Of a DNA stretch of 64,000 bases, positions 51,640 through 64,000 are shown one piece after another. The stretch's first letter is position 1, and each line of letters starts with the position of its first letter. This DNA is from Cylindrotheca closterium. Its lineage: Eukaryota > Bacillariophyta > Bacillariophyceae > Bacillariales > Bacillariaceae. The position numbers were made by a program, and so were the translations under genes. The stretch lies in contig CAKOGP040001870.1 in the NCBI GenBank assembly GCA_933822405.4, forward strand, positions 186,001 through 250,000, given 5' to 3'. The notes beneath the pieces were generated by a model. The model had not been told where the DNA came from and did no database searches. It worked only from the letters and a program-made list of their open reading frames with translations.

Positions 51640-53280
51640 TTACGGCCCATTGTCGTCTCCTTTGAGAGAACCAGACGGAGGATTTTCCAGACCCAGCAAA
51701 CTACTCACGCTTCCCATGAGACTTCGCCGTCTCTTTTTCACTCCCTTGTTGACCTTTTTGACCAACTTGTAAACCTTCTTTCCGCCCTTTTTCGGCAGCG
51801 ACATCATTTTCAATTTCGTGTCCACATTGAACAATCGTTCCAAGGCCAAGGCTGGATCCATCACACCCACATCGTCTTCTTCATAATCCATGACCATAAT
51901 GGAATGACTATTCTGCCGTCGCATACTTCCGCTTGGATGCATATTTATTATTGAGCTAGGAGCATCCGGATCTTCGTATCCATAATCTGGTTCTCCTTCT
52001 TCCGTCTTGCGTTCTTCCTTTTTGTGTTTCAATTCTTCATGGTTTATGCTTTGCTCTCGTATGGACCCTGACATGTCTATACCGTATGCTTTTGTATCAG
52101 GTGTTGGGAGCTGGTTGTTCTTCCTTCCTTTTCTCTTCTTGTTGTTGTTTTCAGTTTCGTTCTCGTCGTTGCCGCAAATGACATCATCATCGTCATCAAT
52201 ACGATTTGTATGGTTCCCGCCGCCAAGGTCATTGTCGTCGTCCTTTCGATTGGTGGGATCAAAATCTTCATTTTCGTCGTCGTCGTCATCGTCAAAGTTG
52301 ACGGATACAATTTCGACCTTCATCTTTCGGGATGGTACCGAATGTTTGATAGCCTTCCACAAGATATACCACCACATTTCCTTTTTGTTGTCTTCCATGT
52401 ACTTGATGTATCGGGGTCGAACGTAAATGGTAAAATTGAAAAAGCCAGCCAAGGGTGTAAAAATAGCATTGGCCAATTGCATCCCAAAGGAAGGTTTGAC
52501 ATTGGCCAATTGCAAGAGGGTCTGTGAGATGGTAGGAATGGTCCACGTCGCATAAAAGGCCAACTCGTAATGCATGGCTTGCCAGAACACTCGACTCGTC
52601 ATTTTCTTGAGTTTCTTTTCTCCCAATTTGCTCGTATCGACAATGCTGTTCCGCCACCTGCGGGAGACGGTTTCTTCGGCCTTGACGTGCACGCACATTT
52701 GGTACATGACGACGGAGGAGGCCAGAATGATGAACCAAAGTGGACCAAAGAAAAAGAACCATTGATAATATCCATTGCCTTCCACGTTGGTAATCCAGCA
52801 CCAGACAAAGAATTCTCCATACACGCCCAGCGGCAGCAGTATAATCGACGTCGCCAAGGCAAACACCAAGGCAAATCCGTGGAGATACTTTTCGTATCCT
52901 CGGAATTTCCGTTCGGGCCATCGATATTTGAGAATCAACAGGTAATACCATGCCAAATAAAAGTGATAGATCGGAGAGGCAATTTCCATCTGAATCAAAA
53001 AGGCTTGGGTGGAACACGTGGCATGATTCCCCAAGGCATAGACTCCATAGGGTGCTTCGTCTCGTTCCATGGGCAACGTCGAAAAGGCGTACATGAGGGA
53101 CGTGAGGAAATCAATGGCGGCCATTCCAAAGACGAGTCGGCAATAGGTCCGCGTTCGTTTCTTGGGGTCTCGGAGAATGTCCTGGAGCACATAACAAGAC
53201 GCAATCGTTGAGATGATTCCGGTAATGTGTGGAATGATGGCCAACGTGCGGAGTTGGGTGTCGTTGAAGGCATCCGCCAT
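51640..53280 (-). CDS. seven-transmembrane receptor with long acidic/basic tail
   Basis: 546 aa, one exon, ATG at 53280. Seven hydrophobic helices lie within the first 300 residues, with a short third loop (VSRRWRNSIVDTSKLGEKK). Cys89 (GNHATCSTQAF) and Cys161 (FFVWCWITN) form the expected TM3-ECL2 pair, and TM7 ends NFTIYVRPRYIKY, as in the receptor at 5068. It belongs to the same cAMP-receptor/Git3-like group. The 230-residue cytoplasmic tail is poorly conserved in look: an Asp-rich block (DDDDDDENEDFD), NKKRKGRKN, a charged KHKKEERKTEEGE stretch, RRQNSHS and a final Lys/Arg-rich segment. Several RxxS sites suggest phosphorylation. The ligand is unknown. Confidence 0.8.
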   Translation of the reverse strand: MADAFNDTQLRTLAIIPHITGIISTIASCYVLQDILRDPKKRTRTYCRLVFGMAAIDFLTSLMYAFSTLPMERDEAPYGVYALGNHATCSTQAFLIQMEIASPIYHFYLAWYYLLILKYRWPERKFRGYEKYLHGFALVFALATSIILLPLGVYGEFFVWCWITNVEGNGYYQWFFFFGPLWFIILASSVVMYQMCVHVKAEETVSRRWRNSIVDTSKLGEKKLKKMTSRVFWQAMHYELAFYATWTIPTISQTLLQLANVKPSFGMQLANAIFTPLAGFFNFTIYVRPRYIKYMEDNKKEMWWYILWKAIKHSVPSRKMKVEIVSVNFDDDDDDENEDFDPTNRKDDDNDLGGGNHTNRIDDDDDVICGNDENETENNNKKRKGRKNNQLPTPDTKAYGIDMSGSIREQSINHEELKHKKEERKTEEGEPDYGYEDPDAPSSIINMHPSGSMRRQNSHSIMVMDYEEDDVGVMDPALALERLFNVDTKLKMMSLPKKGGKKVYKLVKKVNKGVKKRRRSLMGSVSSLLGLENPPSGSLKGDDNGP

Positions 53281-55955: not shown

Positions 55956-58011
55956 ATGGCAGACGAACAACAAGAGGCTACCGGTACCGGTACCAGTAGG
56001 GCCGTTGACGATACCAACACAACTTTAAAAGACGTCGCTGCTGAATCATCATCATCATCATCAGTAGTAGTCACTGCCCCATCTTCTTCTTCTTCCTCCT
56101 CCTCCTTGGCGCCATCTCGCGTCTCGGCCCGTGCTTCCGGTCGTTCCCAAGCGGCCTTGGAGGAAAAGAGGTCCTTGGCGAATCCCCGTACCACTCCACG
56201 CACCTCTGTGGAAACTCGATTGTTGTCCACCAATCATGGCAACCACCACCATACCAATCATCGAGTCCGAGCGAAACTGGAACAGGCAGCCGCAACGTCC
56301 GACACGACCAAGAAGGAAACAACGGCAACAAACACCACAAACACCACAACCGCCGAAGATGCTTCCACCACCACCGCAGCAACCAAAACAACAACAACAT
56401 CATCATCACCATCCTCCACGTCTCGAGTCTCGGCCCGTGCTTCGGTTCGTTCTCAAGCCGCCTTGGACGAAAAGATGTCATTGATGAGTCCTAGAACTGC
56501 TCCTCGCACGTCGGTCGAAAGTCGATTGTCGAATGGTAACAACAACAACAACAACAACAACAGCAACAATATTCATCAGAATCATCATGGTCGAGTCCGG
56601 GACAAAACGATTCTTGGTACTAATAGTCCCACAGTACGACAATTGGAACCCTCGGCCAATCGACCAAGTACGTCTCGACAGGCATTGGAAGAGAAAATGA
56701 GAGAATTGGAGGCACGCCAGGCAACGGAAGATCATAATGATAATGATAATGATGAAGATAATGATAATGATGCTATTCAGGAGGAAGACGACGAACGACC
56801 GGGAGCTGTACGAGTGTCGTATCAAACTCCAAATGAGGATGCAACTACGACGACGACGACCATACAACAACAACAACAACAACAATCTCCAACGAATGAT
56901 ACCCCCAATAACACCATGGAAGTGACGGCGACCAGTGTCGAGGAAGATGAAGAATTGCAAGAATTACGACAACGTGTTTTGGATTTGGAACAACAAAATA
57001 CAAATGATCGAGAACAATCCAAGGATGCTGCTAGAACAACAACAGCAACAACAACAACAACAGCAACAGCAACAACAACGTCATCGCCACCCAGTGATAT
57101 TCCAGTGGCCATGGTTGCCAACGATTATGATAACAAGTGTTGTTCGCAAAAACGTATTTTGATGTATTCCATCATTGCCATTGTCTTGCTCGTCGGAATC
57201 ATTTTGGGTGTCACCCTTATTGGTGGTAAACGTGACGGCAATACTACTGTCGTGATGGTGGCACCCACGGCGTCTCCCACCACGTTGGCGGCGCCCACAA
57301 TGTCGCAGCAACCCAGTTTGGAGCCGTCCCACACTCCCTCGATCGTACCCACCAGCGCCAGACGGATCGATTTGGAGGCCATGCTCACAAATGATTTTTT
57401 TGCACCGCTTCATCCACGGGCCATGGAATGGTTGGCGGAAGAAGATACCTGGGAACCACCTCTGTCTCTCGACCCGGATTTGGCACTGCAAGTGTGGAAG
57501 GAACGGTATGTCATGACGGTCTTCTTTTATGATACCAACGGCGATACGGACTGGGCCTGGGCGGAAGAATGGTTGTTGTCGGATCGTGCCGCTTGTGGAT
57601 GGTGGGGTGGAGTTTGCAATGACTGGTTGACGGCAGATTTATGGATTGCCAACAATGACATTTCGGGAACCATCCCGACCTTGATTGGGCAATTGACCAA
57701 AATTCGGAGACTGAATCTACGTAAGTACGGTATAGCTATATATTTTTTATATAGCTGCCTTGTGGTGGTCCAATGGAGCTGCTATACTGCTGCTACTGCT
57801 ATCATGATTGCCATACTACTGTATACTGTACAACAAACGCATCTCTCACACTCACACACACACGATGGTGATCCAAATTGTTGTTGTTATTATTATTATT
57901 ATTCTGATCCTACCATACTTACTGCAGGCATCAATGGATTCAAAAGTACCATCCCTACCGAACTTGGTCTTCTCACGGAGCTTACCAGCCTGAACCTTTG
58001 TACGTATATAT

Positions 58012-58043
<32 letters not shown>

Positions 58044-60088: not shown

Positions 60089-63000
60089 ATGTACGGATTG
60101 GCCTTTGAAGCTCTTGAAGCCTGGGTGCTTGATGAACATGGTGTCGACACTTGGCATGCTACTAAAAAGAAAGCTCGATGCAATGCAGAAGACAAAGGAT
60201 TTGTATCCCGGACTTCCTATGAATACAAGCTGTTTGTGCGGCTTTTAAAATCACTCTCCTTGTACCTCGAGAAGCCAGCCGATAAAATCCTCAGAAATTT
60301 TGGCAACTACATTGTCGGCTACCTCTTTGCCAGTGAATACGGTTCAATTTTGAGGAGTCAAGGGTCGACAATGCAACAATGGCTGGCAAATATCAACACT
60401 TCTATAGACCACTTCCAGCGAAGTTTTCCGAAAGAAAAAGACCAGAGCAGCAGTCCCGTTTTCTGGTGTGAAGAACGCAAGGAAGAAGAGGGTTCAATAT
60501 TACTCCATCACTACAACCCACGAGGCAATGCTTTTGTCCCATTCGTGGTCGGGTTTTTGGAAGAGTTGGCGACTTTTCACTTTGATATTGACATCAAGAT
60601 GGAACTGCTAAACCTTCAGAACAGCGGTGATGCCAAATATTCCACTTGGATGATCAAGGCTGCTGATCCAACGCATAATTGGAAGATCACGCCCAGTGTA
60701 CCAAAAGAAACGAGCAACATGGATAGGCTATTAGGCTTGACCGACAACGATCTTCCCGTCGTGGGGTGCCCATTCGTCGAAAATGACGGAAACCACGCTG
60801 TGACAACTCGCCCTACAACCGAACCTAGATCAAATATCGGAAGCAATGAAGCACTCACAGTAAACAGACTTAGGCAGGTCTTTCCTTTTCACGTGGTGGT
60901 GGATCGAGACTTTACCGTTGTTCAAGTTGGATCCAAGCTGCCAGTTGTTTTAAAGACAAGTCCTTCAGAACTTTGCGGCACGCACATTAGAGAACTTTTT
61001 GAAGTATTGCGACCAAAAATGGCATTTGGTTGGGACTGGAATGTTTTGGATAAGTTATGGGATCAAACCTTCCTCATGAAGCCAATTACCGATGGGTTAC
61101 AATCAGTGCACGAGGACACAGATATACTCTTCAATTCATCTTTGCTGACTCTGTCAACGCAACTCGTCATGTTCTCCTTGCGACCCAATATGAGGGAGAT
61201 TGATAATCTAAAACGAAGGGGATTGACACTTTCAGACATGTCGAATGTTACATCCGAACGAGATGCTGTGTTCTTGGGAGAATATGTATCGAGGGAGGCG
61301 GGGAAAACACTCGCACTAGAGAGGTTAAGCAGAGACCTTAGAGCAGAACAGGTACGTTTCATTGATGAATTGCATGCCGTTGCCTTATCCTTCTTGGATG
61401 CTCACCGTTGCTTGCGCACACTATAGAAACTGTCGGAAACACTACTGTATAACTTGCTTCCCAAAAACGTTGCCAGAGACCTTCGAAATGGGAAGACGGT
61501 GGAACCGAGGTACTACGAACATGTCACGCTTTTCTTCTCTGATGTAGAAGGCTTTACGTCGCTCTGTGATCAAATTCAACCTTGGGATGTCATTGATATG
61601 ATGAACCAGCTCTATTCTGTCATGGATTTCCTTGCCAAGCACTTCAAATTGTATAAAGTTGAAACAGTCGGTGATGCATATGTCTGTGCGTCTGGACTGC
61701 CGGAAGAGGACGAATCTCATGGGGAAAGAATTGCCAACTTCGCGTTGGCTGTCTTGGAATGCACCAAACATGTCAAGTCACCGCTGACAGGAGAAGCAGT
61801 CAAACTTAGAATTGGTATCCACACAGGAAGTTGTACGGCTGGAGTTGTCGGAACATTGACGCCTCACTACTGTCTCTTTGGAGATATGGTGAATTTCACA
61901 GCTCGACATGAAACAAGCGGTACGCCAGGCAGAATTCATTGTTCCAATGATCTGCATGAACTCTTGAAGTCGCGGTCGCCGGCTGGTGCACAACAGTATC
62001 GCTTCAAACCACGAGGACTGGTCGACATGAAGGGGAAAGGAGAATATCTTACTCATTGGCTTGAGCGTGGTACAGAGAATAACTATGCTGCAAATCCCGG
62101 TTCCTTGCTGACACTCTCCAACAAAGTAAGGAAAAGAATATCGTCCAAAAAGTGGAAGATGAGGAAATACTTCCAAAAACAGCAGCCACAAAAAAGCAGC
62201 AGATCGCTTGATTTATCCATTCACTCTGGTGATCCTTCGTGCATGAGTAGTGTGGCGAGTGAAGGGACAAATTCCATCACACTGAATAGTCGGACTAGTT
62301 TCAATGACAATGATAATCAAGAGCAAAAGGGGGCTGAAATACAGCACGAAAACATCCTGAATTATTCCGAGGAGCTGCCAAAGGATGCCCAAGAATGGAG
62401 AGAGCTCCACTTTGATATCTTCCTCCCAGAAGATGATTTGGTCTCTGAGATTTTTGGTATACTTTTTTCGAAACTGAACAAATGCATCGAAAAGGGCGGG
62501 AGACGACTCAAGATTATCAAGGATCAGCTTAGGTCATATGTACAAGCCATTGTCGACCTCTACAACAGTGACAGCGTTTACCACAGCTTGCGCTACGCCG
62601 CTGAAGCAATGAACCGGGCGGCATTTTTGATGGACCGCCGATCGGAAGTCGAGAAGAAGGATCCATGGGATGTTTTTATGATGGTATTCGCCATCTTTGT
62701 GCGTGACATCCACCACTTAGATATTTCAGATGACCAATTGGAGCATGAACGCCACTATCTCGTCTCACATTACAGAGGCAAAGGTGCCTATCAGCAAAGG
62801 AGGTCTTTGGATGCGGCACTTGAAATTCTTGAGGACGACTTTCAGCAGCTCTACGACGAAATCTTTCTAGGATGCCCAACTTTCCGCCGAGGAGTGAAGA
62901 AGTTGGCTGTGGCTTCCGCAGAGATTGAAAGCGAAAGCAGGCTCAAGGGAATGCTATCAAGATTTGATTCCCATCAAGACAAACCAAGTGCTCGAGTCCG

Positions 63001-64000
63001 AACAGTTCAACATGAAAGTGACGACGTTCTAGCGATGTTTCTTGCACTTGCTACGATGGGCCACTACTGCCAATCTCATGATTTGTTCCTGCATTGGAAT
63101 CAATTGCAACTGATGTCGCAGCTACATTGCTTCGAAAATGATAAACGATCAACAGATCCTTGCAAAAGCTGGCACAAGGAACAAACCTTGATCTTCAAAA
63201 ATACCATCGAACCGATAGTCGCCCGTGTTGAGAAGCTTCTACCACAAAATTCCTGGCTTCGATTTGGTTTCACGAATAATTTGTCTTTGTGGGAGAGAGA
63301 CGGAAGAGAGTGGGTCTCGTCCAGTTTGATTCCTGAAGCCAGGGTCACTGCAGCTCCGTGGGCACACAATTCTGACATGATATCTTCAAATCTGTCGATT
63401 TTGGAGACTCTTTTGGCCGAAATTGCTGCCAGTCGTGGAGAAGATGGCACTGTAGGGGAAGTTGATTGGGAGAGCCTGAAGAAAACTCGCACTCCGTACG
63501 AAGAGATGCGTCTATCACTTGACGTCGGCAGAGTCGACAATCGAGTGAGAATCGACCCATTAAATCATGATGACCTTCCTGCTAGGGTTCAAGAAGAGCT
63601 GCGGGACTTTATGCTGGCGATTTCAAATGGTCATGGTCGAAATGAATTCCATAACTTCCACCATGCAAGCCATGCTGCCCACATTGCTGATCTACTCCTC
63701 CAAAGTCTGGAGACAGAGTCGGATGAAAATCGAAAGATTACGTTCGATCCACTTGTTCGGTTTGCAGTTGTGCTATCCGCATTAGTTCATGATGTTGGAC
63801 ACACTGGCGTGCCAAACAGTCGTCTTAAAGTGGAAAATCCCGAACTCGCAGCCAAGTATAGCAACAAAAGCATTGCCGAACAGAATGCCATTGATATGAC
63901 CTGGAGAATTTTCATGTCCGACGATTTCCAGAATCTTCGAGAGTTCATGTTTGGATCTTCTGTCGCAGATTGCAAGAAGCTTCGCGACTTGATGGTCAAC
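60089..64000 (+). CDS. HNOB-HNOBA-guanylate cyclase-tandem PDE fusion protein (3' end outside window)
   Basis: Exon 1 60089-61351, intron 61352-61426 (75 bp, GTACGT..TATAG, phase 0), exon 2 from 61427 running open off the window; 1279 aa visible. Order: H-NOX/HNOB domain (1 to about 200, starts MYGLAFEALEAWVLDEHG); HNOBA (about 256-405, VFPFHVVVDRDFTVVQVGS); signalling helix; class III guanylate cyclase (about 442-635) with metal Asp460 (FFSDVEGFT) and Asp504 (VGDAYV), GTP-selecting Glu500 and Cys570 (HYCLFGD), and Asn577/Arg581; a degenerate PDE domain (about 740-970; the HDxxHxxxxN site reads RDIHHLDISD at 847-856); and a canonical PDE domain with FHNFHHASH and HDVGHTGVPN (1209-1218). No membrane segment is seen, so it should be soluble. 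The residue aligned to the haem-ligand His of soluble cyclases is Ile106. It would make and hydrolyse cGMP in one chain. Confidence 0.9.

What the first reader, a model, noticed from the sequence alone, without database searches (positions are those of the whole stretch)
60089..64000. One polypeptide joins a soluble-guanylate-cyclase sensor (HNOB-HNOBA) to a cyclase and a phosphodiesterase
The reading frame runs without a break from an H-NOX/HNOB domain through HNOBA, a complete guanylate cyclase domain and on to a PDE domain with an intact metal-binding signature. Membrane-bound cyclase-PDE fusions are known in diatoms and other protists, and soluble HNOB cyclases are known in animals and green algae. 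I do not know of a described protein combining the HNOB module with cyclase and PDE. Such a protein could set a cGMP level by opposing activities under one sensor. This is my best candidate for an undescribed system in the window.
Basis: partly seen in the sequence, partly recalled or inferred. Interest (0 to 1): 0.92.

Follow-up and report, generated by a model that had tools for sequence, protein, structure and literature searches.

The report
Diatom gas-sensor cyclase fused to phosphodiesterases
A diatom carries a family of large soluble proteins that join a nitric-oxide-type sensor, an enzyme that makes the messenger cGMP and enzymes that could destroy it; the copy in this window appears to have lost the gas-sensing and the destroying parts and kept the making part.

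Summary
The frame is not unbroken: a TAG at 61424-61426 ends a 75-nt intron (61352-61426), and a transcript-derived relative (P0002) reads across that junction. The gene runs 759 nt past the window (1531 aa). It is one of 14 such genes found in this genome (13 with the second PDE); 32 of 130 proteins from two searches list all four domains, and the 19 of them that name an organism name diatoms. There are two PDE domains: PDE1, degenerate in all 14 gene models, and PDE2, most similar to PDEs of membrane-type GC/PDE genes. Here the heme-ligating His (sGC beta1 His105) is Ile, YxSxR is HxNxR and a PDE2 metal-ligand Asp is Thr, while all six cyclase residues checked are kept. A tandem sibling and three relatives share the loss of His and Asp; the His loss maps to one branch. 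Best reading: a heme-independent guanylate cyclase with non-catalytic PDE modules in a little-described diatom family. All function is inferred from sequence.

The parts
60089..61351 (+). Exon 1 (421 codons): HNOB, linker, HNOBA; ATG at 60089
60092..60604 (+). HNOB (H-NOX) domain, residues 2-172
   Evidence: Pfam PF07700 2.3e-24; phmmer to sGC beta1 6pas_B 2e-17; AlphaFold2 model, mean pLDDT 90.4
60404..60406 (+). ATA (Ile106) at the position of sGC beta1 His105, the heme ligand
   Evidence: alignment to 6pas_B; family alignment; letters
60857..61351 (+). HNOBA (PAS-like) domain, from residue 257 on
   Evidence: Pfam PF07701 8.7e-20, two stretches
61352..61426 (+). 75-nt GT-AG intron, phase 0, holding the only in-frame stop (TAG 61424-61426)
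   Evidence: same place and phase in models C330b, C556, C190b, C371; joined in transcript-derived P0002
61427..64000 (+). Exon 2, in-window part; goes on for 756 nt plus stop beyond the window (to C330:250759)
61505..62065 (+). Guanylate cyclase domain; D460, E500, D504, C570, N577, R581 all present (their roles are recalled)
   Evidence: Pfam PF00211 2.9e-56; alignments
62522..63142 (+). PDE1: degenerate class I PDE domain (VYHSLRYA in place of HNxxHA, VRDIHH in place of HDxxH)
   Evidence: phmmer to PDE7A 6.9e-8 and 1.9e-7; aligned with the intact single PDE of Ditylum P0033
63647..64000 (+). PDE2, first part: HNxxH (63650) and HDxxH (63788) intact; the fourth metal-ligand position lies outside the window (Thr1322, C330:250127-250129)
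   Evidence: Pfam PF00233; family alignment; alignment to PDE1B

Best explanation
A soluble (no membrane helix found) guanylate cyclase of a diatom gene family with the layout HNOB-HNOBA-cyclase-PDE1(degenerate)-PDE2-conserved tail. In the family at large a heme-bound gas, most likely NO, would act through HNOB and HNOBA on a cyclase homodimer, and the attached PDE would hydrolyse cGMP on the spot. The window copy and its tandem sibling are a derived branch in which the heme ligand and one PDE metal ligand are gone. This copy most likely makes cGMP independently of heme and NO (constitutively, or gated by another ligand in the empty pocket or by a partner), while PDE1 and PDE2 serve as structural, binding or regulatory modules. 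Shown: gene structure, domains, residue states, one origin of the His loss. Inferred: dimer state, absence of heme, cyclase activity, PDE inactivity, NO as the family's ligand.
For: Gene structure and domains. 14 such genes in this genome. Proximal His: 12 of 14 models keep it, C330a has Ile and C330b Phe. Of 144 inputs (130 database proteins, 14 models, some the same gene), 110 align to HNOB: 100 His, 6 Ile/Phe (5 distinct proteins), 4 without an aligned residue. On a 44-row tree with the motif's columns left out, the loss is one change, on a branch with 100/100 support. The PDE2 Asp is Thr or Ser in the same five proteins and Asp in the 11 other models that have PDE2; further PDE2 changes differ among them (C330b HN to RN, P0003 HD to HN). 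The six cyclase residues are kept in all five, and between C330a and C330b the cyclase is 88% identical, against 59-72% in HNOB, HNOBA, PDE1 and PDE2 and 77% in the tail. In mice the His105-to-Phe change in sGC beta1 gives heme-free, NO-unresponsive enzyme, with higher basal cGMP production in reporter cells (PMC4699393, abstract and passages). The genome has NO synthase matches, a possible NO source for intact members.
Against: No biochemistry. Another residue could ligate heme: the second His of the LHDH motif (His108) is kept, though sGC beta1 has it too, beside His105. A PDE lacking one metal ligand might keep some activity; PDE2 of this copy keeps both H-motifs and has Gln where the 11 other models with PDE2 have Glu (that this is the PDE Gln is my alignment by eye). 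The losses rest on alignment, and the C-terminal half of PDE2 aligns only weakly to solved PDEs. The cyclase's best PDB matches are receptor cyclases (guanylyl cyclase C 3.4e-48), ahead of sGC beta1 (3.3e-41).
Confidence: 0.55

Rival explanations
1. One reading: a heme sensor sets the balance of an active cyclase and an active PDE in one chain.
For: All four domains present in order; HNxxH and HDxxH of PDE2 intact; relatives such as Ditylum P0033 and C190a keep the heme His, the cyclase residues and the metal motifs of one PDE.
Against: Heme ligand replaced by Ile, YxSxR by HxNxR, PDE2 metal-ligand Asp by Thr, PDE1 degenerate; the His and Asp losses are shared by all five proteins of the branch.
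Confidence: 0.12
2. Alpha-like partner: the heme-less C330 proteins pair with a heme-bearing paralogue, as the heme-less alpha subunit does with beta in animal sGC, and tune its response.
For: 12 of 14 models in this genome keep the heme His; animal sGC is a heterodimer with NO binding in the beta subunit (PMC3212528, start of abstract in the listing; that alpha is heme-less is recalled); HNOB predicted as a folded domain.
Against: The cyclase domain keeps both halves of the catalytic residue set, so no partner is needed; no interaction or co-expression data were available.
Confidence: 0.25
3. Decaying duplicate on the way to a pseudogene.
For: Loss of the heme ligand and a PDE metal ligand, and further PDE2 changes in the sibling and a relative.
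Against: 1531-codon coding sequence with a canonical intron; 85% identical full-length relative P0001 with the same losses, cyclase 93% identical; on the tree the losses predate the split of the tandem pair.
Confidence: 0.05

Closest known systems
Animal soluble guanylate cyclase (HNOB-HNOBA-cyclase; alpha/beta heterodimer)
   Same: Same first modules in the same order; HNOB matches sGC beta1 at 2e-17, the cyclase at 3.3e-41.
   Different: Two PDE domains and a conserved tail follow; the full catalytic residue set is in one chain; heme ligand lost in this copy; the cyclase scores better against receptor cyclases (guanylyl cyclase C 3.4e-48).
Diatom membrane GC/PDE proteins (Seminavis robusta; PMC4726125 and PMC8027222, passages)
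   Same: Cyclase followed by a class I PDE. PDE2 is most similar to PDEs of other GC/PDE-type loci in this genome: 38-46% identity for this copy and 40-57% for two paralogues, against 23-37% to PDE1s.
   Different: Those are predicted to have membrane helices; here none is found and an HNOB-HNOBA sensor leads.
Chlamydomonas CYG56 (PMC4620153, passages)
   Same: Algal soluble guanylate cyclase placed in an NO-cGMP pathway.
   Different: No PDE domain is mentioned in the passages I saw; its sequence was not compared.
Heme-free sGC beta1 H105F mutant (PMC4699393, abstract and passages)
   Same: Same residue lost; C330b, P0002 and P0003 carry the very Phe.
   Different: Natural and shared by proteins from several datasets, with further pocket changes.

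Membership tests
Soluble guanylate cyclase (HNOB-HNOBA-cyclase) | HNOB, HNOBA and class III cyclase domain in order | tested here: met
Soluble guanylate cyclase (HNOB-HNOBA-cyclase) | No membrane helix | tested here: met
   hydropathy scan: none in the 4 of 14 models scanned, this copy among them
Soluble guanylate cyclase (HNOB-HNOBA-cyclase) | Guanylate-type catalytic residues (E, C, two D, N, R; roles recalled) | tested here: met
Heme-binding H-NOX gas sensor | Proximal His (His105 of sGC beta1) | tested here: not met
   Ile106
Heme-binding H-NOX gas sensor | YxSxR motif (recalled) | tested here: not met
   HxNxR
Heme-binding H-NOX gas sensor | Binds heme and NO | not testable with these tools
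   needs protein
Active class I PDE (PDE2 of this copy) | HNxxH and HDxxH | tested here: met
Active class I PDE (PDE2 of this copy) | Fourth metal-ligand Asp (role recalled) | tested here: not met
   Thr1322; aligned to the Asp of PDE1B AADISH
Active class I PDE (PDE1) | HDxxH | tested here: not met
   altered in 14 of 14 models
Diatom membrane GC/PDE | Membrane helices before the cyclase | tested here: not met
Diatom membrane GC/PDE | Cyclase followed by class I PDE | tested here: met

The most novel reading that the evidence does not exclude
The C330 branch is a natural apo-cyclase: its heme pocket has been emptied and now binds a non-gas ligand (for example a lipid or a mating signal), and its two PDE domains, no longer hydrolytic, read cGMP as allosteric sensors. 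A diatom would then have turned a gas receptor into a receptor for another ligand, beside a dozen siblings that keep the heme ligand and, in most, a PDE with its metal motifs.
Probability: 0.2. Interest if true: 0.85.

Novelty: new variant of a known kind. Interest (0 to 1): 0.6.

Why it matters
Diatom cGMP signalling is implicated in mating (PMC8027222, PMC5485032, PMC4726125; passages), but the Seminavis GC/PDE proteins described there are predicted membrane proteins. A soluble, multi-copy family joining an NO-type sensor, a cyclase and a PDE gives that field candidate NO receptors with built-in signal removal, in a genome that also has NO synthase matches. The branch in this window is a natural test of what an sGC-like cyclase does without its heme ligand, a state that PMC4699393 studies with a knock-in mutant, and of whether dead PDE domains become cGMP sensors.

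Tried and rejected
One unbroken frame: rejected (TAG 61424-61426 in an intron). Two separate genes: not supported, since transcript-derived P0002 (69% identical) is labelled complete and spans all domains. Assembly or frameshift artefact: unlikely (canonical intron, shared position, full-length relative P0001 at 85%).

Origin of PDE2 is open. By identity it is closer to PDEs of the other GC/PDE-type loci (38-57%) than to PDE1s (23-37%). In the 95-row tree PDE2 groups with those PDEs (97/94) and in an 88-row tree PDE1 is one side of a branch (100/100), but both are unrooted. Holding PDE1 and PDE2 together was not rejected there (p-AU 0.335) nor with three PDB outgroup fragments (p-AU 0.086); holding PDE2 with the membrane-type rows was not rejected either and was not the best tree (p-AU 0.22). 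So capture from the membrane-type family is a favoured guess. The label 'membrane-type' was checked at 5 loci: in 2 (C392, C535) a helix lies in the same open frame as cyclase and PDE, in 2 (C539, C537) in a separate open frame upstream, in 1 (C1) no clear helix.

Rows dropped: ten database rows believed to be the genome's own genes; rows with under 120 HNOB residues; seven rows for long branches or non-PDE tails; I used 29 of the 95 rows plus three outgroup fragments.

In one search a hit was scored for C330a at ATDLEN, which is another conserved stretch and not the metal-ligand position, so I count 11 of 14 models as intact. Two models (C556, C568b) have Ala in place of the cyclase Cys. The window's own protein is not among the 59 rows. 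P0017 (C. closterium, 7,398-base contig) equals none of the 14 models, so 14 may be low. The model was not compared with known structures.

Full report
What is there. The stretch 60089-64000 lies on contig C330 of a 47.6-Mb, 572-contig genome. The frame is interrupted once, by TAG at 61424-61426. This is the end of a 75-nt GT-AG intron in phase 0. Of 12 other models looked at, four (C330b, C556, C190b, C371) have an intron at the same place and phase, and P0002, from a transcript set and labelled complete, reads across it. The gene ends 759 nt past the window and encodes 1531 aa.

Domains. HNOB, HNOBA, guanylate cyclase and class I PDE all exceed Pfam's cut-offs. No membrane helix was found. 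The cyclase's best PDB match is guanylyl cyclase C (3.4e-48); sGC beta1 follows at 3.3e-41.

A family. The genome has 15 HNOB matches. Fourteen are followed by HNOBA and a cyclase, and 13 of these have PDE2 (C540b lacks it). The fifteenth (C340) stands apart, head to head with an HNOBA-histidine kinase gene. Two protein searches, with the window protein (59 rows) and with Ditylum P0033 (110 rows, 71 of them new, only the best 7992 candidates scored), give 130 proteins. By their listed Pfam domains 32 of 130 carry all four (29 of the 59, 3 of the 71 new; counted by eye). In 20 of the 32 one PDE keeps HNxxH or HSxxH, HDxxH and the Asp; so do 11 of the 14 models. Ditylum P0033 and unnamed P0038, P0040, P0041 and P0060 have such a PDE as their only one detected; Seminavis P0036 and P0042 have a single degenerate one. 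Many other hits list no PDE domain, and a few carry a histidine kinase instead.

This copy. Against sGC beta1 the heme ligand His105 is Ile106; 12 of 14 models keep His. Of 144 inputs, 110 align to HNOB: 100 have His, 6 have Ile or Phe (P0004 and C330b being one protein, so five proteins) and 4 have no aligned residue. The loss maps to one branch with 100/100 support in a 44-row tree built without the motif's columns. The same five proteins have Thr or Ser for the PDE2 metal-ligand Asp, which the 11 other models with PDE2 keep. All five keep the six cyclase residues, and between C330a and C330b the cyclase is the best conserved part (88%; other parts 59-77%); between C330a and P0001 the cyclase (93%) and the tail (94%) are about equal. 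HNOB alone is predicted as a folded domain (mean pLDDT 90.4). The roles of the catalytic residues, of YxSxR and of the PDE metal ligands are recalled.

Reading. In mice the His105-to-Phe change in sGC beta1 makes the enzyme heme-free and NO-unresponsive, with higher basal cGMP production in reporter cells (PMC4699393, abstract and passages). By analogy the C330 branch should make cGMP independently of NO, and PDE2 is probably non-catalytic. PDE2 resembles PDEs of membrane-type GC/PDE loci more than PDE1, but trees do not settle where it came from.

Literature. Searches of the open-licence library for HNOBA, HNOB, H-NOX or soluble guanylate cyclase together with diatom or phosphodiesterase terms listed no paper that, by title and start of abstract, is about this combination. 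The lists were capped (20 of 21; 20 of 1,797; 30 of 76; 15 of 31), and subscription papers are not held. Diatom mating papers report predicted membrane GC/PDEs in Seminavis and, in Pseudo-nitzschia multistriata, a strongly induced 'soluble guanylate cyclase 88E' (PMC8027222, PMC5485032, PMC4726125; passages). I did not identify that gene's sequence.

Noticed in passing
G000:C340:214141-214641 (-) and open frame from C340:215063 (+); L039: A stand-alone HNOB gene (heme His kept) lies head to head with an HNOBA-HisKA-HATPase open frame that runs off the fetched stretch; HNOB-HNOBA-kinase-receiver proteins are among the database hits (P0052, P0113).
   Followed up: partly
G000:C478:44611-52040: NO synthase (PF02898) matches in two divergent places, one in three pieces: a possible endogenous NO source.
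   Followed up: partly
G000:C540:701500-707500 (L022); P0028: One family member (C540b) lacks PDE2 but keeps a C-terminal tail like the others'.
   Followed up: partly
G000:C101:457000-471000 (L016, L017): Two nearly identical family members (C101b, C101c) about 7.7 kb apart: probably a recent duplication.
   Followed up: no
L021 (C556), L013 (C568b): Two family members have Ala in place of the cyclase Cys that goes with GTP specificity (role recalled).
   Followed up: no
window 51643-53280 (-): Open frame with a weak Dictyostelium cAMP-receptor (Dicty_CAR) match, 5.9e-5, just over the cut-off.
   Followed up: no
window 55956-58013 (+): Open frame with low-complexity repeats and, by eye, leucine-rich-repeat-like stretches upstream of the gene; no Pfam match at 0.001.
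   Followed up: no
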